Positions 10,193 through 35,998 of a DNA stretch of 54,435 nt are shown piece by piece. The notes beneath the pieces were generated by a model. It did no database searches. It saw nothing but the letters and a program-made list of their open reading frames with translations, and was not told where the DNA came from. Source of the DNA: Solirubrobacteraceae bacterium (GTDB lineage: Bacteria > Actinomycetota > Thermoleophilia > Solirubrobacterales > Solirubrobacteraceae); the NCBI GenBank assembly GCA_017882375.1, contig JADGPP010000012.1, positions 1-54,435 on the forward strand, given 5' to 3'. The number at the start of each line of letters is the position of its first letter. Position 1 is the first letter of the stretch. A program made the position numbers and the translations under genes.

Positions 10193-10210
10193 AGATCGCC
10201 CGCGAGACAC

Positions 10211-14899: not shown

Positions 14900-14902
14900 C
14901 CT
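14845..14902 (+). promoter_or_regulatory. Candidate promoter and operator for the DUF5335 gene
   Basis: TCACGGAGCG (14845-14854) resembles the recurring GCACGGANGC motif, and TAGCCT (14897-14902) fits an actinobacterial -10 about 37 bp before the ATG. Both lie within the 3' end of the PfkB frame, so transcription may restart here as well as read through. Confidence 0.3.
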
Positions 14903-14938
14903 CGACCACGAGATCAACGACTCGGCGAAGGAGGCTCG

Positions 14939-15301: not shown

Positions 15302-15340
15302 CTTCCCGTCCTGAACAAACCCGGGTCTTGGTGCGGCCTT

Positions 15341-15380
15341 GCACGGATGCTCGTGCCCCGAGGATGCGTGACGCTAGCGC
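15341..15380 (+). promoter_or_regulatory. Candidate operator and -10 for the DUF2267 gene
   Basis: GCACGGATGC (15341-15350) matches the copy at 19011-19020 exactly. TAGCGC (15375-15380) is a weak -10 candidate 33 bp before the ATG at 15413. The region lies in a true intergenic gap. Confidence 0.42.
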
Positions 15381-15412
15381 TGTCAACCGCGACGAACTCA
15401 AGGGAGCACGTA

Positions 15413-15841
15413 ATGACCACGGCTGAGCCGAGCATCATTTCTCGCAGCGCCGAGCAGGCGCATATCTGGGTCAACGACGTCGCCGAGGCGCTCGGCGACG
15501 ATGATCACGTGTATGCCTATCGAGCACTCCGCGCGGTTCTGCACAGCGTGCGCGACCGTCTGACCGTCGACGTCGCGGCGAAGCTCGCCGCTCAGCTGCC
15601 GACGCTCATCCGCGGCGTCTACTACGAGGACTGGGATCCCAGTCGCACTCCGCTTCCCATCCATGAGGTGGACGCCTTCCTCGATCATGTTGCCCGCGAG
15701 GGCCGCATGGCAGGGGAGACCGAGGCGTCGATCGCCGTGACGGCGGTGGCGCGCGTGCTGCGCGCGCACGTGAGCGCCGGCGAGATCGAGGGTGTCCTCG
15801 CGGTGCTCCCGAACAAGTTCCGCGTCCTGATCGAGGCTTGA
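15413..15841 (+). CDS. DUF2267 domain protein
   Basis: A 142-residue all-helical protein. The DUF2267 pattern is clear: WVNDVAEALGDDD, YRALRAVLHSVRDRLTVDVAAKLAAQLP, IRGVYYEDWDPS and a C-terminal half repeating helices up to VLAVLPNKFRVLIEA. An AAGGGAG ribosome site precedes the ATG at 15413; an upstream in-frame start at 15347 would run through the operator and is unlikely. DUF2267 genes recur with CBS, Usp and Hsp20 genes in bacterial stress clusters. The biochemical role is unknown. Confidence 0.88.
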   Translation: MTTAEPSIISRSAEQAHIWVNDVAEALGDDDHVYAYRALRAVLHSVRDRLTVDVAAKLAAQLPTLIRGVYYEDWDPSRTPLPIHEVDAFLDHVAREGRMAGETEASIAVTAVARVLRAHVSAGEIEGVLAVLPNKFRVLIEA

Positions 15842-15851
15842 GCGAGAGCAG

Positions 15852-16817
15852 ATGGATCAGCCGGGCGCTGCGCGCCGAGCCTCGCCGGCGGCGCGCGTCG
15901 TCATCTTCGCCCCTCATCCGCTGCTAACCGTCACGCTCGAGCGCGAGGGGTCCCAGCGCGAGCAGGTTCATTTCCATGCCGGCGGTCAGGGTGTGTGGGC
16001 GGCGCGCATGGCGGCCTGCCTGGGAGCCGAGCCCGTGCTCTGCGGATTCATCGGCGGCGAGAGCGGCGATCTGCTCAGCGCACTGCTGGCAGTCACGCCC
16101 GGCGAGCGACACATGGTGCGCACCGCGTCGGCCAGCGGCTGCTATGTGACCGATCGGCGATCCGGCGAGCGCCGCGTGCTCACTTGCACGCTCGCCGATC
16201 CTCCCACCCGCCACGAGCTCGACGCGCTCTTCTCGCTCACCTGCTCGCAGGCGGTCGCCGGCGGCTGGCTGGTGATCACCAACCCGATGCCGCCCGAGGC
16301 GCTTGCGCTCGAGACCTACCGCGACCTGGTCGCCGATTCTCGCGCGGTGGGATGCCGCACGCTCGTCGATCTCTCATCGCCGCGGCTGGACAGTGCGCTT
16401 CGGGGCGAGCCGGACGTCGTGAAACTGAACGACTGGGAGCTGGCGCAGTTCGTCTGCGGGCCTGTGTCTGAGCCCTCGCAGCTGCGCGCGGCCGCGCAGC
16501 AGCTTCGCGATCGCGGCGCGCGATCGGTGATCGTCACGCGTGGTGAGCAGCCGGCGCTCGTGCTCGAGGATGAGCGGGCGTGGTGGGTCACGCCGCCGCG
16601 CCTGACGCGCGGCTTTCGCGAGGGGTGCGGGGACGCGATGGCGGGCGCGCTCGCGGCGAGCCTGGCCCAGGGAGAGAGCTTTGAGCGCTCCGTTGCCCTC
16701 GGCGCGGGCGCAGGTGCGGCCAACTTCCTGCGTCACGGCTTGGGCAGCGCCTCCAAAGAGGTCGTCGAGCAGCTCGCCGGCAGTGTCCGGCTGGAGCCGT
16801 TCACGGCCGGGCAGTGA
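15852..16817 (+). CDS. PfkB-family sugar kinase, atypical subgroup (copy 2)
   Basis: A 321-residue paralogue of the kinase at 13874. It shares the unusual N-terminal segments APHPLLTVTLE and HAGGQGVWAARM. The catalytic signature is GCGDAMAGALAAS near residue 259, and SVIVTRGEQPALVLE is shared almost word for word with copy 1. The gene follows DUF2267 by 10 bp. Its 3' end overlaps the convergent CpsB-like gene by 17 bp. Both copies lack the N-terminal Asp typical of phosphofructokinase-2, so the substrate may differ from fructose-6-phosphate. Confidence 0.85.
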   Translation: MDQPGAARRASPAARVVIFAPHPLLTVTLEREGSQREQVHFHAGGQGVWAARMAACLGAEPVLCGFIGGESGDLLSALLAVTPGERHMVRTASASGCYVTDRRSGERRVLTCTLADPPTRHELDALFSLTCSQAVAGGWLVITNPMPPEALALETYRDLVADSRAVGCRTLVDLSSPRLDSALRGEPDVVKLNDWELAQFVCGPVSEPSQLRAAAQQLRDRGARSVIVTRGEQPALVLEDERAWWVTPPRLTRGFREGCGDAMAGALAASLAQGESFERSVALGAGAGAANFLRHGLGSASKEVVEQLAGSVRLEPFTAGQ

Positions 16818-17520
16818 CCGCGTGGCCGCGCACGATCGCGCGCGGCGCCGAGTCCGCCGTCCACGCGAGCTGCTCTGCGGTGCAGGTCGCGGCAAGGCGC
16901 GCATATCCCTGCCCGAGCCGCACCGGCCGGCCCGCATGAGAGGAGTGGGCGTCACTGCCGAGCAGGTGCACCAAGCCCTCTCTGGCGAGGCTGAAGACCA
17001 GATCCCCGGGCGTGGCCTGCGCGACGAACTCGGCGGTCCATTGGATCAGGCAGCCGCGGGCGGCGAGTCGCTGCAGGCGCTCGCGGAAGTCGGCGCCCGC
17101 GTGACGCTCGGGATGGGCGATCACGCTCCCTATCCCTCGTTTGGCAAGCCGCTCGACGAGTGCCTGCAGGCCGTCGTCGAGCGGCCCTGACGCCGGCTCG
17201 ACGAGCAGCCAGCGACCGGCTGAGCCGAGCGTCACCGAACGCAGCTCAGCCTCCGACAGCCGCTCGGCCTGCTCCTGCGCGAGCTCGCCACCGGGCACGA
17301 CGGCGACGCGCACGCGATGCTCGTCGAGCGTTCGCTGCAGAGCGGCCACGCGCGGGGCGATCTCCTGGATCTGAACGGCGTGATCGGCGCGGATGTGGGG
17401 GGTCGCACACACGATCTCGATCCCGTCCTGCTCGGCCTGTCGAGCCATCGCCAAGCTGTCGTCGAGATCGCGGGCACCGTCGTCGAGGGCGGGCAGGATG
17501 TGGCAGTGGAGATCGATCAT
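16801..17520 (-). CDS. CpsB/YwqE-type PHP-family phosphatase
   Basis: A 239-residue PHP-fold metalloenzyme. Metal-binding motifs MIDLHCHILPALDDG (1-15), ATPHIRAD, IAHPERH and LGSDAHSSH match CpsB/YwqE tyrosine phosphatases that act on capsule-synthesis kinases. No kinase or polysaccharide gene is nearby, so the target is unclear; histidinol-phosphatase-like activity is an alternative. The gene converges on the PfkB gene and lies just downstream of the CBS gene (46-bp gap), so it may be read from the same transcript. Confidence 0.83.
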   Translation of the reverse strand: MIDLHCHILPALDDGARDLDDSLAMARQAEQDGIEIVCATPHIRADHAVQIQEIAPRVAALQRTLDEHRVRVAVVPGGELAQEQAERLSEAELRSVTLGSAGRWLLVEPASGPLDDGLQALVERLAKRGIGSVIAHPERHAGADFRERLQRLAARGCLIQWTAEFVAQATPGDLVFSLAREGLVHLLGSDAHSSHAGRPVRLGQGYARLAATCTAEQLAWTADSAPRAIVRGHAVTARP

Positions 17521-17566
17521 CGTTCGTCGGTCTCCCCGGTGGACTCGGCTCGCTGGTTGTGCGCGG

Positions 17567-17983
17567 TCAGCCTGCGAGGGTTCCGGCCACGTCCAGGCTC
17601 GAGACCACGCCGACCGGCAGATCCTCCTTTGGCGAGACCACGACCAGATGCGTGCATTTGTGCTCGGCCATCAGACGGGCGGCCTGCTCGACACTCTCGG
17701 TGGATTGCACGGTGATGATCTCAGTCGACGCGATCTCGCCTGCGCTGACCTGGGTCTGCTCGGCGGCGATCGCGGTGATCAGGTCGAGGTCGGAGACGAT
17801 GCCCCACACCAGGCGCTCCTGACGATCCTGGCCACGCGCGAGCCCGTCGACGACCACGCAATGAACGCGGTTGCTCACCATCTGCGCGCCGAGCTCGTGC
17901 AGCGATGTCTGCGGCGGGACGTTGATCACGCCCCGGTGCATGACCTCGCTCACAGAGGTGGTTGAGGCGGTCGAGGCGGTCAT
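17567..17983 (-). CDS. CBS-domain pair protein (Hrp1-like)
   Basis: A 138-residue protein made of two CBS domains (about 8-75 and 78-137). It starts with SVSEVMHRGVINVPP and repeats with TEIITVQSTESVEQAARLM. GAAAGGA precedes the ATG at 17983; an upstream in-frame start lacks a ribosome site. CBS pairs usually bind adenine nucleotides and act as energy sensors. Mycobacterial Hrp1 (Rv2626c), one of the most strongly DosR-induced proteins, has the same size and architecture. It lies downstream of hsp20 on the same strand with a 154-bp gap that contains GCACGGAGCA at 18122. Confidence 0.88.
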   Translation of the reverse strand: MTASTASTTSVSEVMHRGVINVPPQTSLHELGAQMVSNRVHCVVVDGLARGQDRQERLVWGIVSDLDLITAIAAEQTQVSAGEIASTEIITVQSTESVEQAARLMAEHKCTHLVVVSPKEDLPVGVVSSLDVAGTLAG

Positions 17984-18137
17984 GGCGTGATCCTTTCGAA
18001 CGATGGGCTGGACCGCAAGCTTCGCCGTGTGTCCGGGCGATGCCATCCGCACGGGCTACTGGCTGTCATGCGCACTGCGCCGCAGCTTCGTCGTCTATTG
18101 GCAGCGCTGGCCCCCTGCTGGGCACGGAGCAGGCCGC

Positions 18138-18599
18138 CTACCCGGCCTTGGGCGTTATCCGCACGACCTTGCTGCTCCCCGTCTCCGGCAGCGGCACCGA
18201 TATCTCGACGACGCCGTCGTGGCATGTCGCCTCGATCTTGCTCGGGTCGACCTTCGGCGGCAGCGCAACGGAGCGCGTGAAGCTCGAGTAGCTGAGCTCA
18301 CGGCGGACGAAGCGCTTACCGTTCTTCTTTCCACTCTTGCCGTTCTTGGACTCCTTGGACTCTTCGTGCTCACCGCTGACGGTGAGCACGTCGTCGGCCA
18401 CCTCGATCTTCACATCCTCTGGCTTGATGCCGGGCATCTCGGCGCGCAGCACCAGCTTGCCATCGTCCTCGATCACGTCGAGCTTGGCCAGCTTGGCGCC
18501 GTCGGCACCATGGGACATCTCGTCGAAGAAGTGGTCGATACGGTGACGAAGCTCGGGATACTCACCCAAGCCGGGCCATCTGATCAGCGCATTGGACAT
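18138..18599 (-). CDS. Small heat shock protein, Hsp20/alpha-crystallin
   Basis: A 153-residue Hsp20. The alpha-crystallin domain runs from about 38 to 140, with EMPGIKPEDVKIEV, DDVLTVSGEHEE and the final conserved strand SVALPPKVDPSKIEATCHDGVVEISVP. A Lys/Ser-rich loop (KESKNGKSGKKNGK) is inserted in mid-domain. AAGGGAA precedes the ATG at 18599. The 5' end lies inside the 3' end of the coiled-coil gene upstream (38-bp overlap), which implies coupled translation. HspX/Acr is the hallmark of the mycobacterial dormancy regulon. It probably acts as an ATP-independent holdase. Confidence 0.95.
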   Translation of the reverse strand: MSNALIRWPGLGEYPELRHRIDHFFDEMSHGADGAKLAKLDVIEDDGKLVLRAEMPGIKPEDVKIEVADDVLTVSGEHEESKESKNGKSGKKNGKRFVRRELSYSSFTRSVALPPKVDPSKIEATCHDGVVEISVPLPETGSSKVVRITPKAG

Positions 18600-18867
18600 C
18601 GCCGGTTCCCTTCGTTGCATTGATTGACTTCGTCTGAGGCCTGGCTTTCGTCGCGAGCTTCAACTCGTGAACCTCGTTCCGGCCGGCATGCTGGCGTTGC
18701 AGACGCCGCACCTCCGCCAGCAATCGACCGTTCTCCATGCGAAGCCGCGTGGCTTGTCGGCGGGCGCTGGCGAGCTCCTGGGCAAAGACCGGCACAATCG
18801 TGCGCAAGCTGTGCAGACGATCGAGCAGGTGCTCGCGATCTCTCTGGTCTTCGACCTCCGGTGACAC
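18562..18867 (-). CDS. Small coiled-coil protein overlapping hsp20
   Basis: A 101-residue protein that I do not recognise. Residues about 8-62 form a continuous amphipathic, Leu/Arg/Glu-rich helix (REHLLDRLHSLRTIVP, then LASARRQATRLRMENGRLLA), predicted coiled coil; the tail is basic and polar. The GTG start at 18867 has an excellent AGGAGG ribosome site six bases upstream, which makes it a genuine gene rather than a chance frame. It overlaps the start of hsp20 out of frame by 38 bp, so the two are probably made together. It could be an Hsp20 partner or a regulator; both are guesses. Confidence 0.7.
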   Translation of the reverse strand: MSPEVEDQRDREHLLDRLHSLRTIVPVFAQELASARRQATRLRMENGRLLAEVRRLQRQHAGRNEVHELKLATKARPQTKSINATKGTGDVQCADQMARLG

Positions 18868-19002
18868 TCCTCACCTCCTCCTGATTGCACATCGGTGGGG
18901 AAGAAGATGGTCCCGCCGGACGGCCCGCCGTGCCATCCGCTGATCGCCCCCTGCGCCAGCGGGTTTTCCACATGAGCGCACCGGAACCGTGCAGCGCTTA
19001 TC

Positions 19003-19028
19003 CGCGCAGAGCACGGATGCGCCCGCCC
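19003..19028 (+). promoter_or_regulatory. Candidate operator between coiled-coil/hsp20 and DUF5335/usp genes
   Basis: GCACGGATGC (19011-19020) is identical to the copy at 15341. With ATCCGCGC just upstream it makes a near-perfect dyad with a 3-nt spacer. The stretch GAGCACGGATGCGCCCG also matches 33067-33083, apart from a 2-nt insertion there. It lies between divergent genes, 88 bp before the plus-strand ATG and about 140 bp before the minus-strand GTG. Confidence 0.45.
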
Positions 19029-19044
19029 GTGCGCGACTGGATCA

Positions 19045-19086
19045 TTGGCCTTGATCTCTTCGTCAATGGCCTTGATCTCTTCGCCC
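19045..19086. repeat. 21-bp in-frame tandem duplication upstream of DUF5335 copy 2
   Basis: Copies at 19045-19065 and 19066-19086 match at 18 of 21 positions and share TGGCCTTGATCTCTTCG. On the plus strand they add possible in-frame starts (TTG, ATG) upstream of the chosen ATG. On the minus strand they read EEIKAID-EEIKAND, a heptad. No ribosome site is visible before them. Confidence 0.7.
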
Positions 19087-19107
19087 ACCGATGAAACGGG
19101 GTTTCGC

Positions 19108-19602
19108 ATGTGCACGACCAGGCAATCGCTGGCACCAGAGAGGTGGGGGGAGTTCTTCGACGGGCTGGTCGCGACCGACGGTCCCTCGCTGGTTGCGGTG
19201 GAGGTCGTCCGCAAGCGGCCGGCCGAGCAGCGCATCGGGATGCCGCGGACGCTTTCGCAGATCGGCTATGACCTCGACCGCGACGTGCTGAAGCTCACCT
19301 CGGGGGCCCTCGATGAGAACGACGCCGGCGTGCTGCGCCATTTCATACACGAGCCTCTGACGATCAGCGTCGAAGATCGTGCACCGCACGGACCCCTGCT
19401 GATCCTGGTTTGCGATGCGACCGGGGTGCGGACGCGGATACGTCTACACGCGCGCGCCTGCACGCGGACACAAGCCGATCTGCGGCGAGCCACCTGTCGC
19501 GCAGCCGGGCGCACGCGGCGCAGGCCGTGCAGCTCGCATCTCCTGACGACGAGCAGCAGCGCAACGGCTCGTCGCGCATGCCGACAGGGCACGAGCGCAT
19601 GA
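19108..19602 (+). CDS. DUF5335 family protein (copy 2) with Arg-rich C-terminal extension
   Basis: A 164-residue protein. Residues 1-115 match copy 1 in layout: RWGEFFDGLVATDGPSLVAVE, QIGYDLDRDVLKL, RHFIHEPLTISVED and DATGVRTRIRL. The remaining 50 residues are Arg/Thr/Ser/Cys-rich and unlike anything in copy 1. That could be a frameshifted 3' end or a lineage-specific tail. The stop overlaps the next ATG (ATGA), which argues that the present frame is the translated one. In-frame TTG 19045 and ATG 19066 in a tandem repeat are alternative starts. Confidence 0.68.
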   Translation: MCTTRQSLAPERWGEFFDGLVATDGPSLVAVEVVRKRPAEQRIGMPRTLSQIGYDLDRDVLKLTSGALDENDAGVLRHFIHEPLTISVEDRAPHGPLLILVCDATGVRTRIRLHARACTRTQADLRRATCRAAGRTRRRPCSSHLLTTSSSATARRACRQGTSA

Positions 19603-20447
19603 GCAGGCCCGAGACGACGTACGCGCGGGCTCCCGGGTCCGGCCGGGCGTTCGCAGACGTCCTCTGCGCGGTCGACGGAACCCGCCGCAGCTACACGGCC
19701 GTCGAGCAGGCCGCGGTGCTCGCGGGTCCGACAGGGAGGCTGACCCTGATGGCCGTGACCGCCGTCGCCGGGGCGGGTGCCTACCGGTCGGCCGCGATCG
19801 ACCCCAAGCGGGTCAACTGGATTCTCGATCGCGCTGCGCAGATCGCCGAGCGCGCGGGCGTCGACTGCGAGCGAGTCGTCGATCCGGGCGGTCCGCCGTC
19901 CGCCGAGATTCTCCGGGCGGCCTCGGCGCACGAGCTGCTGGCGCTCGGGGCGCCCGCGATGTCCTGGCTCGGCGGCGCGCTCGTGGGCGACGTAGCCTTC
20001 GAGACGATGAAGTCGTTTACGACGCCGCTGCTGATGGCCCGGCCGCCCGAGGCCGCGCGGCCGTTCGCCGAGCGCATCCTCGTGGCAAGCGACGCGCTGG
20101 AGGAGTCAGACCGGGTCGTCGAGCTCGCCGGTCGGCTCGCGTTCGAGCAGGGCTCGAGCGTGGTGCTGGTGCATGGCGGCGCCGACTCGCCGGAGCTGCC
20201 CGCTCGTCTGCAGGCGCAGGCGCACGAGCTGGAGCTGCTGCTGCCCGCCAGAAGCGAGGCGTTGCTCGAGCCCGCGGGCGCGCGAGAGGCGATCCTCGAC
20301 GCCGCGCGCAGCAGAGAGGCCTCGTTGATCGTGATCGGCAGTCGCCGGCGCAGCTCCGAGCACGCCCTGGGAAGTGTCAGCAGGCGCATCGTGCACGATG
20401 CGCCCTGCTCGGTGCTGCTCGTGCCGCCCGAGGACCCGCCGCGCTGA
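19599..20447 (+). CDS. Universal stress protein, tandem domains, degenerate ATP motif
   Basis: A 282-residue tandem Usp protein (domains about 20-148 and 158-278). The C-terminal domain ends IGSRRRSSEHALGSVSRRI, where the G-2x-G-9x-G-S ATP motif has lost its second Gly and two spacer residues, so ATP binding is doubtful. The first domain has LGAPAMSWLGGALVGDVAF, also non-canonical. The ATG at 19599 overlaps the DUF5335 stop. It is followed 26 bp later by the APH/P-loop gene, the same pairing as Rv2005c-Rv2004c in M. tuberculosis. Confidence 0.87.
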   Translation: MSRPETTYARAPGSGRAFADVLCAVDGTRRSYTAVEQAAVLAGPTGRLTLMAVTAVAGAGAYRSAAIDPKRVNWILDRAAQIAERAGVDCERVVDPGGPPSAEILRAASAHELLALGAPAMSWLGGALVGDVAFETMKSFTTPLLMARPPEAARPFAERILVASDALEESDRVVELAGRLAFEQGSSVVLVHGGADSPELPARLQAQAHELELLLPARSEALLEPAGAREAILDAARSREASLIVIGSRRRSSEHALGSVSRRIVHDAPCSVLLVPPEDPPR

Positions 20448-20473
20448 CGCCGCGCGGGTCGAGGCGGAGGGCG

Positions 20474-22084
20474 ATGACCAGCTCATCGATCGGTCAGGCG
20501 CGCCCGCAACAGAAAGAGCTTGGCGACCCCGATCTGCTGCGCGCGCTCGCCACCGCGGAGCTGTTTCCCGGCGCCGGCTCTGTCGCGATGCACGAGACGC
20601 ATGCGTCGTGGGTGTTCGTGGCGGGCGGCCGCGCATTGAAGGTGAAGAAGCCCGTCGCACTCGGCTTCCTCGACTACAGCACGCTGTCGCGACGGCTGCG
20701 CGCCTGCCGCGAGGAGGTGCGCGTCAACCGGGCGCTGGCCCCGGACATCTACCTGGGGGTGCGGGCGATCGTCAGGGACCTCGGCGGTTTTCGCCTGGCG
20801 CCAGAGGACGCCGCCGAGGCGGTCGAGTACGCGGTCGAGATGAATGGCTACCGTGAGCAGGACACGTTCGCCGGCCTGATCGCGGTCGGCTGCCTCGAGC
20901 GCAAGGACATCGTCGCCGTGGCCCGCGTGCTGGCCGACTTTCACCGCTCGGCCGAGGTCGTGCGCGATTGGGGGCCACAGCGAGCGCTCGCTCGCTGGCG
21001 GCAGAACATCGAGGAGCTGGCGCGAACCGAGCACCCGGCGGAATGGTCGCTGGAGGCCTCGGAGCTCTTCGGCGATGCCTTCGTCAAGGCGCGCCAATCG
21101 GAGCTGCGCCAGCGCGCGCTGATGGGACTCGCGCGCGACGGCCACGGCGACCTGCGCTGCGAGCACGTGCTCGCCCGGCCGGCGGTCAGCGTGGTCGATC
21201 GCATCGAGTTCGATCCGAGCCTGCGCCGCATCGACGTCGCGGCCGACCTGGCATTCCTGACGATGGATCTGGAGGCGCTGGGCCACCGCTGGGCTGCCCA
21301 CGAGCTCGTCGATGCCTATCGCGATTGCGGGATCGACCCCGCCAGCGAGGCGCTGCGCTGCTTCTACGCCGCGCACTGCGCGCTGGTTCGCGCGAAGGTG
21401 GCCCTGATCTCCGCGTCTGAGCGCACCGGCGCAGCGCGCGAGGCCCAGTGGCAGGCGGCGCAGCAGCTGTGGTCGCTGAGCCAGCGCCTGTGCTGGCGCG
21501 CGCGCAGGCCTCTCGCGCTCGTGATCTGCGGGCCGGCCGCGAGCGGCAAGTCGGTGCTCGCCGAGGAGCTGGCCAGGCACTCGGAGCTGCCGGTCGTCTC
21601 CTCCGATGCCGTGCGCAAGCGTCTGGCGGGTCTCGAGCCTTCACAGCCGGCGAGCCCGGAGCACTACACCGACGACTTCACGCGCGCGACCTATGCGCGG
21701 CTCGCGCGCGATGCGCTGGACGCGCTGCAGGACTGCGGTGGAGTTCTCGTCGACGCGACCTGCCGCACGCGCCGCTCACGCGAGCCGCTGCTGAGCGGCC
21801 TGCGGGCAGCCGGCGCAACAGTCCTGCTGGTGCGCTGCGAGATACCGCTGGAGATCGCGCTGGCCCGTGTCGAGCGACGGCTGAGCCAACCGGGACACGT
21901 GTCCGATGCAACGCCGGAGATCGTCGAGCGCCAGCACCGCGACTTCGACGAGCCGGCGGGCGATGGCGTGGTGCGCCTGGACACGTCGCTGTCCCTGGAC
22001 GCGCAGGTCGCCGAGCTCGCGCGTGCGGTGGATCGCGCACTGCCCGTGCGTGCCGAGGACAGCGCGGCGAAATCCGGTCCGTAG
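20474..22084 (+). CDS. Bifunctional aminoglycoside-phosphotransferase-like/P-loop kinase (Rv2004c-like)
   Basis: A 536-residue two-domain protein. Residues about 20-335 form an APH-like kinase fold with LKVKKPVALGFLDYST (the Lys-bearing strand), the catalytic loop HGDLRCEHV near 222 and the metal-binding region IEFDPSLRRIDVAADLA. Residues about 345-525 form a P-loop kinase with Walker A GPAASGKS and a VDATCRTRRSRE segment. The same architecture is seen in DosR-regulated Rv2004c. Substrates of either domain are unknown, and antibiotic resistance should not be inferred. It probably forms an operon with the usp gene upstream. Confidence 0.87.
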   Translation: MTSSSIGQARPQQKELGDPDLLRALATAELFPGAGSVAMHETHASWVFVAGGRALKVKKPVALGFLDYSTLSRRLRACREEVRVNRALAPDIYLGVRAIVRDLGGFRLAPEDAAEAVEYAVEMNGYREQDTFAGLIAVGCLERKDIVAVARVLADFHRSAEVVRDWGPQRALARWRQNIEELARTEHPAEWSLEASELFGDAFVKARQSELRQRALMGLARDGHGDLRCEHVLARPAVSVVDRIEFDPSLRRIDVAADLAFLTMDLEALGHRWAAHELVDAYRDCGIDPASEALRCFYAAHCALVRAKVALISASERTGAAREAQWQAAQQLWSLSQRLCWRARRPLALVICGPAASGKSVLAEELARHSELPVVSSDAVRKRLAGLEPSQPASPEHYTDDFTRATYARLARDALDALQDCGGVLVDATCRTRRSREPLLSGLRAAGATVLLVRCEIPLEIALARVERRLSQPGHVSDATPEIVERQHRDFDEPAGDGVVRLDTSLSLDAQVAELARAVDRALPVRAEDSAAKSGP

Positions 22085-22193
22085 TAACGCGCAGGCGCCC
22101 GGCGGAGAGATCCCGATGGCCCGATCGTGCGTCGGTTCTAGCGTCGTGGAGTGAACTGCTCACCACATAGAACGACGACGGGAGATGCACGAG

Positions 22194-23735
<1,542 letters not shown>

Positions 23736-23837: not shown

Positions 23838-24980
23838 ATGAGCGAGACCGACCGCTACACACTGGAGCGGGAGGCCTTCGACGAGCTGTTCGCGGCGCTT
23901 GCTCGGCGCGGGTACACGGTCGTCGGCCCGACGGTGCGCGATCAGGCGATCGTCTACGACGAGATCGCCTGCAGCGCCGACCTGCCGCTCGGCTGGACCG
24001 ACGAGCAGGACGGCGGGCACTACCGGCTGCGGCGCCGCGACGATCAGGCGCTGTTCGGCTACAACGTCGGACCGCACTCGTGGAAGCGCTACCAGCTGCC
24101 GCCGGAGGTGCGCCTGTGGCGCGCGCGCCGCGACGAGCACGGCGGCCTGAGCGAGCTCGCCGAGGCTCCCCGTGAGCCGCCGCGCTACGCCTTCCTGGGC
24201 GCGCGCTCCTGCGAGCTGCACGCGATGGGCATCCTCGACCGCGTGCTGGTCGGCGGCGCTCATCCCGATCCCGCCGATCGCGCCCGGCGCGAGGACGTGC
24301 TGGTCATCGCCGTCCAGTGCGCGCAGGCCGGCGGGACGTGCTTCTGCGTCTCGATGGGCACGGGCCCAACGGCCGACAGCGGCTTTGACATCGCGCTGAC
24401 CGAGGTGCTCGACGGTGCCCGTCACTACTTCGTGCTCGAGGTCGGCAGCGAGCGTGGCGCCGACGTGCTCGGTGATCTTCGCCATGCGCGTGCCCAGGAC
24501 GACGAGCGCGAGGCGGCGGCGGGCGCACATGCGCGCGCGGCCGCGCAGATGGGTCGCGAGATCGACGTCACCGACATCCGCGAGCTGCTCTACCGCAACT
24601 ACGAGAACCCGCGCTGGGACGACGTCGCCGAGCGCTGTCTGTCGTGCGGCAACTGCACGATGGTCTGTCCGACGTGCTTCTGCACGACCGTCGAGGACGT
24701 CACCGATCTCGCCGGCGAGCACGTCGAGCGCCATCAGCGCTGGGACTCGTGCTTCACGATCGACTACTCGAACATCCACGGCGGCGCCGTGCGCGCCAGC
24801 ACGCGCTCGCGCTACCGGCAGTGGATGACGCACAAGCTCGCCACCTGGATCGATCAGTTCGGCAGCTCGGGCTGCGTCGGCTGCGGGCGCTGCATCACGT
24901 GGTGTCCGGTGGCGATCGACATCACCGAGGAGGCTCGAGCGATCCGCGCGAGCGAGGAGACCGGCGATGCAGGGGCTTGA
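23838..24980 (+). CDS. hydB: Group 3b NiFe hydrogenase (sulfhydrogenase) beta subunit, 4Fe-4S ferredoxin-like
   Basis: A 380-residue iron-sulfur subunit. Two C-terminal 4Fe-4S sites are visible: [16 protein letters not shown] (near 269) and [12 protein letters not shown] (near 345). The N-terminal two thirds match HydB/AsrA-like electron-transfer subunits ([19 protein letters not shown]). It would relay electrons between the FAD subunit and the small subunit in the cytosol. It is the first gene of a co-directional operon with overlaps at nearly every junction. A GTG- or upstream-start alternative is not needed. Confidence 0.9.
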
Positions 24981-25434
24981 GGAGCTGATCGCCGCCTCGC
25001 CGGTGTTCGCCGGCCTGTCCCCGGCGCACCTGCAGCTGATCGCCGGGTGCGGCGCCAACGAGCACTTCAGCGCCGGCGCGCGGCTGTTTGCAGAGGGGGC
25101 TCCCGCCGATCGCTTCTTCCTGATCCGCGAGGGCGCGGTCGCGCTGGAGGTCGACGCTCCCGGTCGCGGCGCGCTGGTGATCGAGACGCTGCAGCGCGGT
25201 GAGGTGGTCGGCTGGTCGTGGCTGTTTGAGCCATACCTGTGGCAGTTCGATGGCCGAGCGGTCGCGCCGACGCGCGTCGTCGCCTTCGACGGCGCGTGCC
25301 TGCGCGGCAAGTGCGAGGCCGACCACGAGCTCGGCTTTCAGCTGATGCGGCGCTTCGCCGCCTCTGTGATCGAGCGCCTGCAGGCCACGCGCCTGCAGCT
25401 GCTGGACGTCTACGGTCATGCTCGGCTCGACTGA
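24967..25434 (+). CDS. Stand-alone cyclic-nucleotide-binding-like domain protein within hydrogenase operon
   Basis: A 155-residue protein that is only a CRP-type beta-roll domain with a C-terminal helix; there is no helix-turn-helix. Aligned to [14 protein letters not shown] (78-88) replaces GDFIGELGLFE, so the Glu that contacts the cAMP ribose is Trp83, while the phosphate-contacting Arg is kept (Arg97 in GRAVA). Canonical cAMP binding is therefore doubtful. It overlaps hydB by 14 bp and ends 25 bp before the chosen hydG start, so it is stoichiometrically tied to the hydrogenase. It may be a regulatory subunit; that is inference. Confidence 0.82.
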
Positions 25435-25459
25435 GGCCGTCGGCCCCGAGGTCGGGCCG

Positions 25460-26269
25460 ATGGTGCCGCAGCCGTTCGTGGTCGCGGCCAAGCGGCGCGA
25501 GACCGTCGACACCTGGACGCTCGAGCTGCAGCCGAGCGGGGGAGAGGGGCTGGCGTTCGCACCGGGGCAGTTCACGATGCTGTCGGCCTTCGGCGCCGGC
25601 GAGGTGCCGATCTCGATCAGCGGCGATCCGAACGCCAGCGGCCCGCTCGTGCACACCGTCAGGTCGGTCGGGCTGGCGACCGAGGCGATCTGCGCGGCGC
25701 CGGTCGGCGAGGTGCTCGGCGTACGCGGTCCGTTCGGCCGGCCGTGGCCGGTGGCGGAGATCGCCGGCTCCGACGTGCTGGTCGTCGCTGGGGGGATCGG
25801 TCTGGCGCCGCTGCGCCCGGCGATCCTCGCGCTGCTGGCCGATCGCGAGCGCTACGGGCGCATCGTGCTGCTCTACGGCGGCCGGGCGCCCGATCAGCTG
25901 CTGTACCCCGGCGAGCTGGAACGGTGGTCGGAGCTCGGGCTGGACGCGGCCGTGACCGTCGACAGCGCCGGGCCGGAGTGGCTCGGCCATGTCGGCGTCG
26001 TGCCACGGCTCGTGCGCCGCGCCGGCTTCGACGCCGCGCGCGCCGTGGCGCTGCTCTGCGGGCCCGAGGTGATGATGCGCTTCACGGTTTCCGCGCTCGC
26101 CGCGCGCGGCGTGGACAGCGAGCGTGTGTACGCGTCGATGGAGCGCAACATGCAGTGCGGCATCGGGCATTGCGGGCACTGCCAGCTCGGACCCACGCTG
26201 GTGTGCCGCGACGGGCCGATCTACCCGTGGAGCGAGCTCGCGCCGTGGCTGGCGATCAGGGAGCTGTGA
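25460..26269 (+). CDS. hydG: Group 3b hydrogenase gamma subunit, FAD/NAD(P)-binding reductase
   Basis: About 269 residues, of the ferredoxin-NADP reductase-like HydG family. FAPGQFTML (flavin binding), the pyridine-nucleotide site [14 protein letters not shown] and the C-terminal 2Fe-2S Cys set [17 protein letters not shown] are all present. It would exchange electrons with NAD(P)H. ATG 25460 has GAGG nine bases upstream and gives the family N terminus MVPQPF; ATG 25418, in frame and overlapping the previous gene, is the alternative. Its stop overlaps the hydD start (TGATG). Confidence 0.92.
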
Positions 26270-27051
26270 TGAGCACTCCGCGCAGGCAGACGCTGGCCGT
26301 GTGGAAGTTCGCCTCCTGCGACGGCTGTCAGCTGAGCCTGCTCGACTGCGAGGACGAGCTGTTGCTGCTTGCCGATCGCCTGCAGATCGCCTACTTCCTG
26401 GAGGCCACCAGCGCGACGGTCGAGGGTCCCTACGACATCTCGATCGTCGAGGGATCGATCACCACCGCGCACGACGCCGAGCGCATCCAGGAGGTTCGCC
26501 GCAGCTCGCGCGCGCTGATCACGATCGGCGCCTGCGCGACCGCCGGGGGCATCCAGGCGCTACGCAACTTCGCCGACGTGGAGGACTTCACGCAGATCGT
26601 CTACGCCGAGCCCGACTACATCTCGACGCTGGCGACCTCGACGCCGATCAGCGCGCACGTGCCGGTCGACTTCGAGCTCCACGGATGCCCGATCAACAAG
26701 CAGCAGCTACTCGAGGTGATCGCCGCCCAGCTCGCCCGCCGCCGGCCGCGCGTGCGCGCGCACAGCGTGTGCGTGGAGTGCAAGCGCCGCGGAACCGTCT
26801 GCGTGATGGTCGCCCACGGCACGCCGTGCCTCGGCCCCGTCACCCACGCCGGCTGCGGTGCGATCTGCCCGGCCTACGACCGCGGCTGCTACGGCTGCTA
26901 CGGGCCGATGGAGGCTCCGAACACCGCGGCCTTGAGCCGACAGATGAGCCAGCAGGGCTCCGACGAAGTGGACCTGGTGCGCGTGTACCGCACCTTCTAC
27001 GCCGGCGCCGAGCCGTTCCGGCGGGCAGGCGAGGCGCATGAGCGAGGATAG
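26269..27051 (+). CDS. hydD: Group 3b NiFe hydrogenase small (delta) subunit
   Basis: A 260-residue small subunit. The proximal-cluster Cys set is visible: [16 protein letters not shown] (near 15-30), IGACATAGG, the region near LHGCPINK, and later Cys residues in [11 protein letters not shown] and [15 protein letters not shown] that serve medial and distal 4Fe-4S clusters. There is no Tat signal peptide, consistent with a cytosolic enzyme. It pairs with the large subunit encoded downstream (14-bp overlap). Confidence 0.94.
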
Positions 27052-28342
27052 GCAGCGACGAGTGATCCGCACCGACCTGCTCGCGCGCGTGGAGGGCGAG
27101 GGGGCGATGTACGTGAGGATCGACGGACGCCAGGTCGCCGAGGTCAAGCTGCGCATCTACGAGCCGCCACGCTTCTTCGAGGCGTTCCTGCGGGGCAGGG
27201 CGTTCACCGAGGCCCCCGACATCACGGCGAGGATCTGCGGGATCTGCCCGATCGCCTACCAGATGAGCGCAGTGCGGGCGATGGAGGACGCGTGCGGCGT
27301 CGCGATCGACGACGGTCCGCTGCGCGACCTGCGCCGGCTGATCTACTGCGGCGAGTGGATCGAGAGCCACAGCCTGCACGTGTACATGCTCCACGCGCCG
27401 GACTTCCTCGGCTACGCGGGCGCCGTCGAGATGGCTCGCGACCACCGCGAGATCGTCGAACAGGGTCTGCAGATGAAGAAGATCGGCAACGCCCTCATGG
27501 CCCTGGTCGGCGGACGCGAGGTCCACCCGATCAACGTCCGCGTCGGCGGCTTCTATCGCGCCCCGACCGTCGCGCAGCTGCGATCGCTGCGCGAGCCGCT
27601 GCTGCGGGCACGCGAGACGGCGCTGGCGACGGTCCGCTGGACGGCGCAGCTGCCGTTTCCCGAGGTCGAGCGCGCGCCCGAGCTGGTCGCGCTGGCGGAT
27701 CCCGGCGGCTACCCGATCGACCTCGGGCGGATCGTCTCAGACGCCGGCCTGGACATCGCGGCGCACGAGTTCGACGAGCACTTCATCGAGGAGCACGTCG
27801 AGCACTCAAACGCCCTGCACGCGCGCATCCGCGAGCGCGGCAGCTACCTGACGGGCCCGCTGGCGCGCTACGGCCTCTGCTCGGGGCAGCTGCGACCGCT
27901 CGCTGGCGAGGCTGCGCGCGAGGCCGGGCTCGGGCCGGTCTGTCGCAATCCCTTCCAGAGCATCGTCGTGCGCGCGGTGGAGCTCGTGCAGGCCTGCGAC
28001 GAAGCGCTGGCGATCGTCGAGCGCTACGAGCTGCCCGACGCACCCGCCGTCGAGGTCGTCCCGCGGCGGGCGACCGGACACGGCGTCACCGAGGCGCCGC
28101 GCGGCATGCTCTACCACCGGTATGAGATCGACGATGACGGCACGATCCTCGATGCCCGAATCGTGCCGCCGACATCGCAGAACCAGCTGGCGATCGAGGA
28201 GGATCTGCGCGCCGTCGTCGAGCAGGAGCTGGACCTGCCCGACGACGAGCTCTCGCTGCGCCTGGAGCAGGCGATTCGCAATCACGATCCGTGCATCTCC
28301 TGCGCGACGCACTTCTTGAAGCTGACAGTCGACCGTGGCTGA
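27038..28342 (+). CDS. hydA: Group 3b NiFe hydrogenase large (alpha) subunit
   Basis: A 434-residue catalytic subunit. The NiFe ligands are in [13 protein letters not shown] (about 64-76) and DPCISCATH near the C terminus (about 416-424). About ten residues (FLKLTVDRG) follow the final His and would be cut off by the maturation protease encoded next. In family terms it is the bidirectional NADP-coupled, O2-tolerant group 3b, also called sulfhydrogenase. A 3b enzyme (Hyd3) belongs to the DosR regulon of M. smegmatis. No hyp accessory genes other than the protease are in the window, so they must be elsewhere. Confidence 0.95.
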
Positions 28343-28832
28343 GGCGCGGGCGCGCGCGACGGTCGTGATCGGCGTCGGCAACTCGCTGCGCCACGACGAC
28401 GCGGCCGGGCTTGAGGCGGTGCGCCGGCTGCGCACGCGCGCCGAGCGGGCAGGGGTGGTCGTGTGCGAGCAGCAGGGCGAGTGCCTGGGGCTGCTGGCGC
28501 AGTGGGAGGGCGCCGGGGCGGTGGTCCTCATCGACGCGATCCACTCCGGTCGCGCGCCGGGCACGATCGATCGTCTCGACGCGTCAGCGACGGCGCTGCC
28601 CGCGGAGCTCGTCGGCTCCTCCTCCACGCACGCGGTGGGCATCGGCGAGGCGATCGAGCTCGCGCGCGCGCTCGATCGCCTGCCGGCGCGCGTCGTCGTG
28701 TTCGGCGTCGAGGGCCGCTGCTTCAGCGCCGGCGAGGGTCTCTCAGAGCAGGTGCGCGCGGCGATCCCCGCGCTCGCCGACGCGGCCGTGCAGGAAGCCC
28801 TGCGCCTGGCCGGTCGATCGGCGACCGGTTGA
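28335..28832 (+). CDS. Hydrogenase maturation endopeptidase
   Basis: A 165-residue HycI/HoxW-type protease that starts at GTG 28335, overlapping hydA by 8 bp. [20 protein letters not shown] (residues near 12-31) holds the Glu/Asp expected near the Ni-binding site, though the family Asp/Glu spacing is slightly altered; DAIHSG carries the second acidic ligand and [16 protein letters not shown] the His. It should remove the C-terminal tail of HydA after nickel insertion. It is the last gene of the operon. Confidence 0.92.
28810..28828 (+). terminator. Hairpin at end of hydrogenase operon
   Basis: CCGGTCG (28810-28816) pairs perfectly with CGACCGG (28822-28828) around a 5-nt loop. It sits within the last codons of the protease gene and before the convergent gpmI end. 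There is no T run; candidate terminator only. Confidence 0.35.
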
Positions 28833-31801: not shown

Positions 31802-31863
31802 GTTTGCCCTGACCCGCACGCGCGGTGAACGACCGAAGCCCGACGACGGGCAAACACGGATGC
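31802..31863. promoter_or_regulatory. Widely spaced dyad plus ACACGGATGC in pgk/DUF779 divergent region
   Basis: GTTTGCCC (31802-31809) and GGGCAAAC (31848-31855) are perfect inverted copies 38 bp apart. The right arm overlaps ACACGGATGC (31854-31863), one base off the recurring island motif. The site lies between divergent pgk and DUF779 genes and could act on both. Confidence 0.4.
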
Positions 31864-31901
31864 ACGGGGACCTGGCGCGGTGTTTCAGTCGTGGTGTGGC
31901 G

Positions 31902-32261
31902 ATGCCCAACAGATCAAGCGCCCCGGAAAGCGGGGTGACTGCCTCCGCGGAGGCAGTCGCGATGGCGAAGACGCTGTCGGCAAAGCACGGTCCGCTCGCC
32001 TTCTTTCAGTCCGGCGGCTGCTGCGACGGGAGCTCTCCGATCTGCCTGTGCGACGGCGAGCTGCCGCCCGGGGCCAACGACCTGCTGCTGGGAAGCATCG
32101 CCGGGGCCCCGTTCTACGTCGACCGCGAGCAGTACGAGCGCTGGGGCCGCCCGTCGTTTCTGATCACCACGGCTTGCGGGCCGGCCGAGGGCTTCTCGCT
32201 GTCGCTGCCCGACGCTCACTTCGTCACGCGGGCGCCGGGCGCTCCAAACCCGCAGGCCTAG
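31902..32261 (+). CDS. DUF779 family protein
   Basis: A 119-residue soluble protein with the DUF779 hallmarks: AFFQSGGCCDGSSPICLCDG with paired Cys residues, DLLLGSIAGAPFYVDREQYE, and a C-terminal GFSLSLPDAHFVTRAP. The Cys cluster suggests metal or thiol chemistry. DUF779 genes usually neighbour ExaC-type aldehyde dehydrogenases; the matching ALDH here is at 22194. Function unknown. ATG 31902 gives the family length; 31860 is an in-frame alternative. Confidence 0.87.
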   Translation: MPNRSSAPESGVTASAEAVAMAKTLSAKHGPLAFFQSGGCCDGSSPICLCDGELPPGANDLLLGSIAGAPFYVDREQYERWGRPSFLITTACGPAEGFSLSLPDAHFVTRAPGAPNPQA

Positions 32262-32334: not shown

Positions 32335-33042
32335 ATGACCCCGGATCTGCACGTTGTCCCGCCGCCGGCCGATCCGCAGTCGACTGAGAAGGCGTCGAGC
32401 GCGATCCGCGTGATCGTCGCCGACGATCACGAGCTGATGCGGTTCGCTTTGCGAGCGCTGTTGAGCACCGAGCAGCAGATCGACGTGATCGCCGAAGCCG
32501 AGCAGCTGTCGCTGGCGATGAGAAATGTTCGCGAGCTCAGGCCCGACGTGCTCGTGCTCGACCTGCGCATGCACGACGGCTCGAGCATTGATGCGATCGG
32601 CGAGTTGCGCGAACAAGCCCCGGAGACGAGAGTCGTGGTCATCACGGCCGAGGACAACCCGCTGTACGCCGAGCATGCGCTGGCTGCCGGCGCGTTCGGC
32701 TTCGTGCTCAAGGATCAGGCCGACGTGGAGCTTGCGCCGGCCGTTCGCGCGGCGGCGGAAGGTCGACGCTACGTCAGTCCGGAGATCGACGCGAAGCTCG
32801 CCGACCTGCGCCGGGGGCTGACCAGCGACAAGCTCACGGGGCGCGAGCTGGAGGTGCTGCGGCTGATCGCGCTCGGCCACACGAGCGTCGAAGTGGCCCG
32901 CATCTTGCAGATCTCCTCACGCACCGTTGAGTCTCACCGGGCGCGAGTCCACGCCAAGCTCGGTCTCAGCACGCGCGCCGAACTGGTGCGCTACGCGCTG
33001 CGGCGCGGCTTGCTCGGGACCGAGAAGGGCAGGCATGCGTAG
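32335..33042 (+). CDS. NarL/LuxR-type response regulator (DosR/DevR-like)
   Basis: A 235-residue regulator. The receiver domain (about 24-145) has the acidic pocket DD (30-31), phospho-acceptor Asp76 in VLDLRM and Lys126 in GFVLKDQ. The LuxR/NarL helix-turn-helix runs 166-226 (LTGRELEVLRLIALG, ARILQISSRTVESHRA). The N-terminal 22 residues are extra and disordered. The double-GAF kinase at 34286, separated only by a usp gene, is its likely partner, the same neighbourhood as mycobacterial dosR-dosS. It may control the whole island. Confidence 0.9.
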   Translation: MTPDLHVVPPPADPQSTEKASSAIRVIVADDHELMRFALRALLSTEQQIDVIAEAEQLSLAMRNVRELRPDVLVLDLRMHDGSSIDAIGELREQAPETRVVVITAEDNPLYAEHALAAGAFGFVLKDQADVELAPAVRAAAEGRRYVSPEIDAKLADLRRGLTSDKLTGRELEVLRLIALGHTSVEVARILQISSRTVESHRARVHAKLGLSTRAELVRYALRRGLLGTEKGRHA

Positions 33043-33101: not shown

Positions 33102-33130
33102 CGATGGCAGGCGACAACAAGGAGATCACG

Positions 33131-34024
33131 ATGTTCAAGAACGTTCTGGTGGGTGTCGACGGTCGCGCAAACGGCCGCGACGCGATCGCGCTCGCCTCAC
33201 AGCTTGTCGCTCGCGACGCAAGCCTCACGCTCGCCCACGTGCGCGGCGGCGGGCTGCGCCCGTTTCAGCCTCTCGGTCCCGCGCTGCTGGTCGACGAGGC
33301 GAAAGCCTCGCGAGAGCTGCTCGAGCGCGAGCGCGCGGCCGCCGGCGTCGATGCCGAGCTGGTCGGTGTCGTCGCCGCGAGCCCCGGACGCGGCCTGCAC
33401 CAGCAGGCAGAGAGGCAGGGCGCAGACCTGCTCGTCGTCGGATCCTGCAGTCGCGGTCTGCTCGGACGCGCGGTGCTCGGAGACGACGCGCGCGCAGCAC
33501 TGGATGGCGCTCCCTGCGCGATCGCGATCGCCTCACGCGGCTACGCCGACGGCGCTCGATCGATCGACAGGATCGGCGTCGGCCTCGACGGATCGCGCGA
33601 GAGCGAGGCCGCCCTCGCGCGGGCGCGAGAGTTGGCGGGCGAGCGCAAAGCATCCGTCAGCGCGCTGGAGGTCGTCACGATTCCGCCCGTCATGTACACG
33701 GGTCTGATGCCGCCGCTGGCGGGCGAGAGCATCGACGCGCTGCTCGAAGAAGCGACGGGACGCATGCGGGAGATGCCCGATGTCGCCGGGCGGGCGGTGT
33801 ACGGGATTCCGGGCGAAGAGCTGGCTGCGTTCGGAGACGAGTTGGACCTTCTCGTCGTCGGCTCGCGCAACTACGGCCCGGTCCGGCGCATGGTCGCGGG
33901 CAGCACGTGCGACTACCTCGAGCGTCACGCCCGCTGCTCGTTGCTCGTGTTTCCCCGCACGACGATCGGGTCCTCGCAGGAGGGCGACTCCAGCGCGCAG
34001 ACAGAGGTGCCCGCGACCGCCTGA
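33131..34024 (+). CDS. Universal stress protein, tandem domains
   Basis: A 297-residue protein with two Usp domains (about 1-135 and 148-280). The C-terminal motif GSRNYGPVRRMVAGS keeps the spacing of the ATP-binding loop but has Asn for the second Gly; the first domain has GSCSRGLLGRAVLGDD, also degenerate. AAGGAGATCACG precedes ATG 33131, an ideal ribosome site. It lies between the response regulator and the histidine kinase, which suggests it is one of their direct targets. Confidence 0.9.
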   Translation: MFKNVLVGVDGRANGRDAIALASQLVARDASLTLAHVRGGGLRPFQPLGPALLVDEAKASRELLERERAAAGVDAELVGVVAASPGRGLHQQAERQGADLLVVGSCSRGLLGRAVLGDDARAALDGAPCAIAIASRGYADGARSIDRIGVGLDGSRESEAALARARELAGERKASVSALEVVTIPPVMYTGLMPPLAGESIDALLEEATGRMREMPDVAGRAVYGIPGEELAAFGDELDLLVVGSRNYGPVRRMVAGSTCDYLERHARCSLLVFPRTTIGSSQEGDSSAQTEVPATA

Positions 34025-34285: not shown

Positions 34286-35998
34286 ATGGACCGACCGACG
34301 CAGGGGATCCTCGAGGTTGCCCGCAGCGTTCTCTCCGAGCTGGACCTTGATGTCGTTCTCGATCGCGTGCTGGAGGCTGCGCAGGAACTGACGCAAGCGC
34401 GCTATGCCGCGGTCGGCGTATTGAACGAGTCGAGGACCGAACTGGCGCGCTTCTTGACCCGGGGAATCGACCAGGCGGCGCACAGCGCGATCGGCAACCT
34501 GCCCCGGGGTCGCGGCGTGTTGGGGGCTCTGATCAACGACCCGGTCCCGCTGCGCGTCGGCGACGTCGGCGAGCATCCGCACTCCTACGGATTCCCACAC
34601 GGCCATCCGCCGATGCGCTCGTTCCTCGGCGCGCCGATCCTCACCGCAGGTGTGCCGTTCGGGAACCTGTACCTGACCGAGAAGGCCGGAGGTGAGCAAT
34701 TCACCGAGGAGGACGAGCAGGCGCTCGTCGTGCTGGCCGACTTCGCCGGCGTGGCAATCGACCACGCACGTCGCTACACGGGAGCAGCAGATCGCCGCGA
34801 CGAGCTGCAGCGCACCGTCGCGGCGTTGGAGGCCACGACGCAGATCGCGCGAGCCGTCGGAGGCGAGACCGACCCGGAGGTGGTCCTCGAGCTCGTGGCC
34901 AAGCGCGGTCGCGCCCTCGTCTCGGCGCGCGCGCTGGTGATCGAGCTCGAGCGCGGCTCTGAGCTGGAAGTCGCCGCGGGCGCGGGCGAGCTGCCGGCGG
35001 AGCTGATCGGCCGGCGCGTCGCGCTCGCCGACACGGTCGCCGCGCACGCCATGCGCACCAGTCGCGTCCAGCGCCTGGAGGATCAGCTCAATCGCGCGCG
35101 CTTCGAAGAGCATGGGCTTGGCGGGTTGGGCGTCCAGGCCGACGGCGGACTCGTCGTCCCGCTGATCTTCCGCGGGCGAAGCCACGGCGTGCTGCTCGCG
35201 CTCGACCGCCTCAAGGACGGGCCCAGCTTCTCGGCCGAGGACGAGCGTTTGCTGGAGTCCTTCGCTACGAGCGCCGCGACCGCGGTGGCAACCGCGCAGT
35301 CGGTCACCTCCGAGCGCCAGCGCCAGCGCCTGGCTGCCGCCGAGGGCGAGCGCCACCGCTGGGCGCGAGAGCTGCACGACGAGACGCTGCAGACACTCAG
35401 CGCGCTGCGCTTCGGGCTGTCCGCCGCGAGGCGCTCGGACAAGCAGGGGGGTCTGCAGGAGGCGGTCGGGCGGGCCGTCGAACAGATCGAGGAGACGATC
35501 GCCGATCTGCGGGCGCTGATCAGCGATCTGCGTCCGGCGGCGCTCGACGAGCTCGGTTTGCAGGCGGCCATCGAGACGCTGTCCGAGCGCAGTGGGCGCA
35601 ACGGGATACAGGTCGACCTGAGTATCGAGCTCGCGCACGAGAGTGGTCTGCAGCCGACGCGACTCTCCAGCGAGCTCGAGACGGCGCTGTACCGCATCGT
35701 GCAGGAGGCGCTGACCAACGCGAGCAAGCACGGACAGGCCGCCCGCGCGGTCGTCGAGCTGCGCGAGGACCCGACCTCCATCTGCCTGCTCGTCCGCGAT
35801 GACGGCAAGGGCTTTGATCCGAGCGCGAGCAGCTCAGGGTTCGGTCTGCTCGGCATGCGCGAGCGCGCCGCGCTGCTCGGCGGCGAGCTGCGGATCGAGT
35901 CGCCGAGCACGGGGGGGACCGAGCTGCGCGTCCGGATACCCACACAACGGCGCGAGCCGGCCGGAGCATCCAGGGCCGTCGCCTCGTTGGGCAGCTAG
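34286..35998 (+). CDS. Double-GAF sensor histidine kinase, DosS/DosT-like heme sensor
   Basis: A 570-residue soluble kinase: GAF-A (about 15-165), GAF-B (about 185-340), HisKA_3 with phospho-acceptor His364 in RELHDETLQTL, and HATPase with QEALTNASKHG (473-483), DDGKGFD and GFGLLGMRER. By alignment from memory to DosS, the proximal heme ligand His149 corresponds to His107 (GFPHGHPPM) and the distal Tyr171 to Tyr129 (NLYLTEK). DosS Glu87, which limits heme access, is Gly44 here, as in the O2 sensor DosT (Gly85). The N terminus is about 40 residues shorter than in DosS. GGGAG precedes the ATG. Confidence 0.92.
   Translation: MDRPTQGILEVARSVLSELDLDVVLDRVLEAAQELTQARYAAVGVLNESRTELARFLTRGIDQAAHSAIGNLPRGRGVLGALINDPVPLRVGDVGEHPHSYGFPHGHPPMRSFLGAPILTAGVPFGNLYLTEKAGGEQFTEEDEQALVVLADFAGVAIDHARRYTGAADRRDELQRTVAALEATTQIARAVGGETDPEVVLELVAKRGRALVSARALVIELERGSELEVAAGAGELPAELIGRRVALADTVAAHAMRTSRVQRLEDQLNRARFEEHGLGGLGVQADGGLVVPLIFRGRSHGVLLALDRLKDGPSFSAEDERLLESFATSAATAVATAQSVTSERQRQRLAAAEGERHRWARELHDETLQTLSALRFGLSAARRSDKQGGLQEAVGRAVEQIEETIADLRALISDLRPAALDELGLQAAIETLSERSGRNGIQVDLSIELAHESGLQPTRLSSELETALYRIVQEALTNASKHGQAARAVVELREDPTSICLLVRDDGKGFDPSASSSGFGLLGMRERAALLGGELRIESPSTGGTELRVRIPTQRREPAGASRAVASLGS

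What the first reader, a model, noticed from the sequence alone, without database searches (positions are those of the whole stretch)
34286..35998. Sensor kinase keeps both heme-side residues and has the DosT-type Gly, predicting a direct O2 sensor
In GAF-A, His107 and Tyr129 fall exactly where DosS His149 (proximal) and Tyr171 (distal) lie, in near-identical surroundings (HPPMRSFLG, LYLTEK). DosS Glu87, which restricts heme access, is Gly44, as in DosT. The alignment was made from memory of DosS.
Basis: partly seen in the sequence, partly recalled or inferred. Interest (0 to 1): 0.8.

Follow-up and report, generated by a model that had tools for sequence, protein, structure and literature searches.

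The report
DosT-like heme oxygen-sensing kinase
A soil-type actinobacterium (Solirubrobacterales) carries an ordinary member of the heme-based oxygen-sensor kinases known from tuberculosis bacteria; the glycine that looked special is the normal state of the whole family, and it is M. tuberculosis DosS that is the odd one out.

Summary
ORF 34286-35998 (+, 570 aa) is GAF-A/GAF-B/HisKA_3/HATPase. Its GAF-A is 50% identical to DosT and 45% to DosS; His107, Tyr129 and Gly44 align with DosS His149/Tyr171/Glu87 and DosT His147/Tyr169/Gly85. An AlphaFold2 model matches DosS/DosT heme domains (Z about 24) better than any other GAF (at most 19). Heme binding is likely. The interpretation needs correcting. 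In 179 family members His and Tyr are near universal and Gly is the default (167); Glu occurs only in DosS and one close orthologue, a single change on the tree. With those three columns masked from the profile, 172 of 175 top-scoring GAF domains have His+Tyr, 164 of these 172 have Gly, and none of 95 weaker GAFs has the pair. So His+Tyr+Gly is the family signature; Gly does not single this kinase out, and the Glu87 channel-blocking idea is disputed in the literature. Other pocket positions match neither DosS nor DosT (Leu46, Thr58). Most likely it is a DosT/OsdK-type ferrous-heme O2/CO/NO sensor signalling to the NarL-type regulator at 32335, which is only 34% identical to mycobacterial DosR; no DosR box was found. 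New member of a known kind; modest interest.

The parts
34286..35998 (+). Sensor histidine kinase, 570 aa: GAF-A, GAF-B, HisKA_3, HATPase_c
   Evidence: ORF; Pfam PF13185/PF01590, PF13492, PF07730, PF02518 above cut-off; motifs HDET 364, EALTN 474, DDGKGF 505, GLLGM 520
34340..34762 (+). GAF-A, DosS/DosT-type heme GAF domain (aa 19-159)
   Evidence: phmmer E 1.9e-39 to DosT 2vzw; AF2 model pLDDT 90, VIA Z about 24 to DosS/DosT GAF-A
34415..34417 (+). Gly44 codon, position of DosS Glu87 / DosT Gly85
34604..34606 (+). His107 codon, predicted proximal heme ligand (DosS His149 / DosT His147)
34670..34672 (+). Tyr129 codon, predicted distal tyrosine (DosS Tyr171 / DosT Tyr169)
34871..35290 (+). GAF-B (aa 196-335)
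   Evidence: Pfam GAF_3
35375..35377 (+). His364, predicted phospho-acceptor in HisKA_3
   Evidence: HDET motif; family knowledge of HisKA_3 H-box
32335..33042 (+). NarL/FixJ-type response regulator (REC + LuxR HTH), probable partner
   Evidence: Pfam PF00072 + PF00196; best PDB matches VraR, then DevR/DosR; 34% identical to a mycobacterial DosR
33104..34024 (+). Tandem universal stress protein between regulator and kinase
   Evidence: Pfam Usp x2; weak PDB match to M. tuberculosis TB31.7 2jax

Best explanation
A cytoplasmic DosT/OsdK-type sensor kinase. GAF-A binds heme b through His107; the open distal side, with Tyr129 and a small residue (Gly44), lets ferrous iron bind O2, CO or NO with Tyr129 hydrogen-bonding the ligand. 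By analogy with DosT, O2 keeps the kinase off; loss of O2 (or NO/CO) switches His364 autophosphorylation on and phosphate passes to a NarL-type regulator, most likely the one at 32335-33042, which would activate nearby stress and low-oxygen genes. Shown here: the sequence, domain order, residue correspondence, predicted fold, and that His+Tyr+Gly is the conserved signature of the family. Inferred: heme binding, ligand preference, sign of the response, partner, regulon.
For:: residue correspondence and 45-50% identity to solved heme domains; confident model, DosS/DosT GAF-A Z 23.9-24.7 versus at most 19.4 for other GAFs; with the three columns masked from the profile, His+Tyr in 172 of 175 top-scoring members and in 0 of 95 others, Gly in 164 of those 172, i.e. 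conserved together as a pocket; complete HisKA_3 and HATPase; the genome encodes three heme-copper oxidase subunit I genes and HemQ-family protein, so it is aerobic and very likely makes heme; regulator, USP and kinase on the same strand; in M. tuberculosis the USP gene Rv3134c forms an operon with devRS (PMC5309233).
Against: No heme or spectrum measured. The Glu87-to-Gly argument is disputed. Pocket positions 46 (Leu; His in DosS, Arg in DosT) and 58 (Thr; Tyr in both) differ from both M. tuberculosis proteins, so the affinity could differ. USP adjacency is not generally conserved in relatives (11 of 109 loci).
Confidence: 0.72

Rival explanations
1. Heme-binding but redox rather than O2 sensor: the ferrous heme auto-oxidises quickly and the ferric/ferrous switch is the signal, as some groups hold for DosS.
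For: DosS has been purified as ferric by two groups (PMC4082495); the distal surroundings here are not identical to DosT: Leu46, Thr58.
Against: In the reported mutants the Gly/Ala state gives a stable oxy complex and Glu promotes oxidation; the query has Gly; the DosS Tyr-Glu-His relay is absent (G44, L46).
Confidence: 0.12
2. Heme sensor whose physiological ligand is NO or CO rather than O2.
For: DosS/DosT bind all three and the NO/CO complexes are the active ones (PMC4082495).
Against: Nothing in the neighbourhood points to NO or CO: no nitroreductase, nitrate reductase or CO dehydrogenase was recognised in the Pfam scans.
Confidence: 0.1
3. GAF-A no longer binds heme and senses another small molecule, the residues being inherited.
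For: Cyclic-nucleotide GAF domains share the fold (Z up to 19).
Against: His and Tyr are kept in 172 of 175 family members down to about 40-50% identity while GAFs outside the family lack the pair: maintained, not relic.
Confidence: 0.06

Closest known systems
Mycobacterium tuberculosis DosT (Rv2027c)
   Same: Domain order; proximal His, distal Tyr and Gly85 equivalents; 50% identity over GAF-A; highest-scoring PDB sequence.
   Different: Leu46 for Arg87, Thr58 for Tyr98, His66 for Arg106, Asn71 for Ser111; one extra residue near position 51; next to a regulator and a USP gene.
Mycobacterium tuberculosis DosS/DevS (Rv3132c)
   Same: Proximal His149 and distal Tyr171 equivalents; 45% identity; structural match Z 24.7.
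   Different: Glu87 is Gly and His89 is Leu, so the Tyr171-Glu87-His89 relay is absent. On the tree the Glu arises once, in DosS and its close orthologue.
Streptomyces coelicolor OsdK/OsdR (SCO0203/SCO0204)
   Same: DosT-like kinase of a non-pathogenic actinobacterium with USP genes nearby; 15 of 18 oxygen-sensing residues of DosT kept (PMC5069765).
   Different: OsdR is 61% identical to DevR and binds DevR sites; the regulator here is 34% identical to a mycobacterial DosR and no such site was found.

Membership tests
DosS/DosT-type heme GAF sensor kinase | GAF-A, GAF-B, HisKA_3, HATPase order | tested here: met
   Pfam
DosS/DosT-type heme GAF sensor kinase | Proximal His and distal Tyr at the DosS 149/171 positions | tested here: met
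   H107, Y129
DosS/DosT-type heme GAF sensor kinase | GAF-A sequence and fold closest to DosS/DosT among solved structures | tested here: met
DosS/DosT-type heme GAF sensor kinase | Binds heme b through the proximal His | not testable with these tools
   Needs purified protein and H107A
DosS/DosT-type heme GAF sensor kinase | O2 suppresses, deoxy/NO/CO allow autophosphorylation | not testable with these tools
   Needs a kinase assay
DosT-like (gas sensor) subtype | Gly rather than Glu at the DosS-87 position | tested here: met
   Gly44, but Gly is the family default (167 of 179), so not diagnostic
DosT-like (gas sensor) subtype | DosT residue at the seven DosS/DosT differential positions | tested here: inconclusive
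   3 of 7 DosT-like, 0 DosS-like, 4 neither
DosR/OsdR regulon system | Partner regulator is a close DosR relative (OsdR is 61% identical to DevR) | tested here: not met
   34% identity; recognition helix differs (SRTVESHR against EKTVKNYV)
DosR/OsdR regulon system | DosR box or OsdR site upstream of neighbouring genes | tested here: not met
   0 DosR-box matches with up to 3 mismatches; OsdR-like pattern at or below chance; no shared dyad

The most novel reading that the evidence does not exclude
A DosT-type O2 sensor in Thermoleophilia that acts through a regulator of different DNA specificity from DosR yet controls a neighbourhood functionally like the mycobacterial dormancy regulon (USPs, HSP20, CBS protein, PfkB, an erythromycin-esterase/phosphoribosyltransferase pair, group-3b-like hydrogenase). 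That would mean the heme-sensor/dormancy-gene association outlived replacement or deep divergence of the regulator and its operator, and that DosS's Glu87 state is a late mycobacterial exception.
Probability: 0.35. Interest if true: 0.45.

Novelty: new member of a known kind. Interest (0 to 1): 0.3.

Why it matters
It extends the DosS/DosT/OsdK class to a detailed example in Solirubrobacterales, and the survey turns the question round: the usual state of the heme pocket is His + Tyr + Gly, so DosS's Glu87 (and the debated redox-sensor behaviour tied to it) looks like a single late change near M. tuberculosis. Testing several Gly members, including this one, would separate what the pocket does by default from what DosS added.

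Tried and rejected
Mtb DosR box in the window, 0 matches. OsdR-like pattern GGGMCNNNNGKCCC, 14 matches against 19 expected. Perfect or near palindromes: no repeated upstream motif seen. Dyad enrichment over 16 upstream regions: observed best 4, random sets mostly 5-7. The P-type ATPase at 7380-10178 was first noted as CtpF-like; NCBIfam places it with heavy-metal IB ATPases, so the CtpF parallel is dropped. USP adjacency as a conserved family trait: only 11 of 109 loci (0 of 34 controls); regulator adjacency is no better than for unrelated HisKA_3 kinases (84 of 109 against 28 of 34). Cho 2009 and Podust 2008 are not held, so their contact-residue lists come from the review.

Full report
What is there. 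The ORF at 34286-35998 (+) encodes 570 aa with a GGGAG-like ribosome site upstream. Pfam finds two GAF domains, HisKA_3 and HATPase_c, with intact H-box (His364), N-box (EALTN 474), G1 (DDGKGF 505) and G2 (GLLGM 520) motifs. The host is a member of Solirubrobacterales/Thermoleophilia, judged from the named relatives; its 3.57-Mb draft genome has one such kinase with GAF-A and a paralogue lacking it, three heme-copper oxidase subunit I genes and a HemQ-family gene.

In the alignment G44 = DosS E87/DosT G85, H107 = H149/H147 and Y129 = Y171/Y169, with 45% identity to DosS and 50% to DosT. An AlphaFold2 model from 38 relatives (pLDDT 90, pTM 0.86) matches DosS/DosT GAF-A at Z 23.9-24.7, ahead of every other GAF (at most 19.4); model residues 20-166 align to DosS 63-208.

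What the residues mean. GAF-A domains were collected from 231 loci of the family and the phylum and aligned with DosS and DosT (179 rows). His is kept in 176 and Tyr in 175. The DosS-87 position is Gly in 167, Ala in 7 and Glu in two only: DosS and L205, which is 88% identical to it. On a maximum-likelihood tree built without that column, Glu needs one change; support on the tree is modest, but the DosS+L205 pair has 99% SH-aLRT. When a profile is built with the three columns masked, GAF domains split cleanly: of 175 scoring above 100 bits 172 have His+Tyr; of 95 below, none do; Gly is present in 164 of 172 His+Tyr domains and in 2 of 98 others. So His, Tyr and a small residue at position 44 are kept as a set, which argues for a working heme pocket, and the Gly is ancestral and not a special mark of this kinase. 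The sample was gathered by similarity to the query, DosS and DosT, so the percentages describe that family and not GAF domains at large.

Limits of the O2-sensor inference. [quoted passage not shown] DosS signalling has been linked to a Tyr171-Glu87-His89 relay (PMC9062744); here Glu87 is Gly and His89 is Leu, as in most of the family (position 46 is Leu, Ile or Val in 150 of 179), so that relay cannot operate. Of seven DosS/DosT differential positions the query is DosT-like at three, DosS-like at none and different at four; the heme-contact Tyr98 of DosT is Thr58. A DosT-like ferrous gas sensor is the best guess; its affinity cannot be read from the sequence.

Surroundings. A NarL-type regulator (32335-33042) and a tandem USP (33104-34024) precede the kinase on the same strand; in M. 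tuberculosis a USP gene, Rv3134c, forms an operon with devRS (PMC5309233). The window also holds two further USP genes, HSP20, a two-CBS protein, two PfkB kinases, an erythromycin esterase next to a phosphoribosyltransferase, an AAA_33 protein, an acetaldehyde dehydrogenase with DUF779, and a group-3b-like [NiFe] hydrogenase operon. USPs, HspX, Rv2626c, PfkB Rv2029c, Rv2004c and Rv2030c are DosR-regulon genes in M. tuberculosis (the domain equivalences of Rv2004c, Rv2626c and Rv2030c are from my own knowledge) and Hyh belongs to the dos regulon of M. smegmatis (PMC8125079). The resemblance is suggestive only: the regulator is 34% identical to mycobacterial DosR with a different recognition helix, there is no DosR box, no OsdR-like site above chance and no shared dyad, and in close relatives the kinase has other neighbours. 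The genome has a second USP-regulator pair on contig 85 beside a phosphoketolase and without its own HisKA_3 kinase among the genes scanned there.

Verdict. A new member of the DosS/DosT/OsdK class. Family membership rests on domain order, residues and fold, all met; the two biochemical features cannot be tested here. It is not shown to be a DosR-type regulon system: the two features tested for that were not met. Interest is modest; the more useful result is the reversed polarity, with Gly the rule and DosS Glu87 the exception.

Noticed in passing
window 23838-28832 (+): Group-3b-like [NiFe] hydrogenase operon: Fer4_22 subunit, cyclic-nucleotide-binding protein, NAD-binding Fe-S subunit, small subunit (Oxidored_q6, in the frame of ORF 25744-27051), large subunit, HycI protease; best PDB match is an archaeal cytosolic/sulfhydrogenase alpha subunit.
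   Followed up: partly
window 4810-22084: Cluster resembling parts of the mycobacterial dormancy regulon: USP, erythromycin esterase next to phosphoribosyltransferase/hydrolase, two PfkB kinases, CBS protein, HSP20, USP, AAA_33 protein.
   Followed up: partly
L253 9251-10870 (own genome, contig 85): Second USP plus NarL-type regulator pair (62% and 50% identical to those in the window), divergent from a phosphoketolase and with no HisKA_3 kinase recognised beside it: a possible second output of the same kinase.
   Followed up: partly
L205 near 4432: The only other Glu at the DosS-87 position, in a domain 88% identical to DosS; it also has His at the DosS-89 position, so Glu87 and His89 go together.
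   Followed up: partly
L221, L222, L223, L224: Group in the same family as the DosS/DosT-like loci with Ala at the DosS-87 position, the state of the E87A mutant that binds O2 stably.
   Followed up: no
window 22185-23735 and 31860-32261 (+): Acetaldehyde dehydrogenase ExaC (above NCBIfam cut-off) and a DUF779 protein flank the hydrogenase and PGK/iPGM genes.
   Followed up: no
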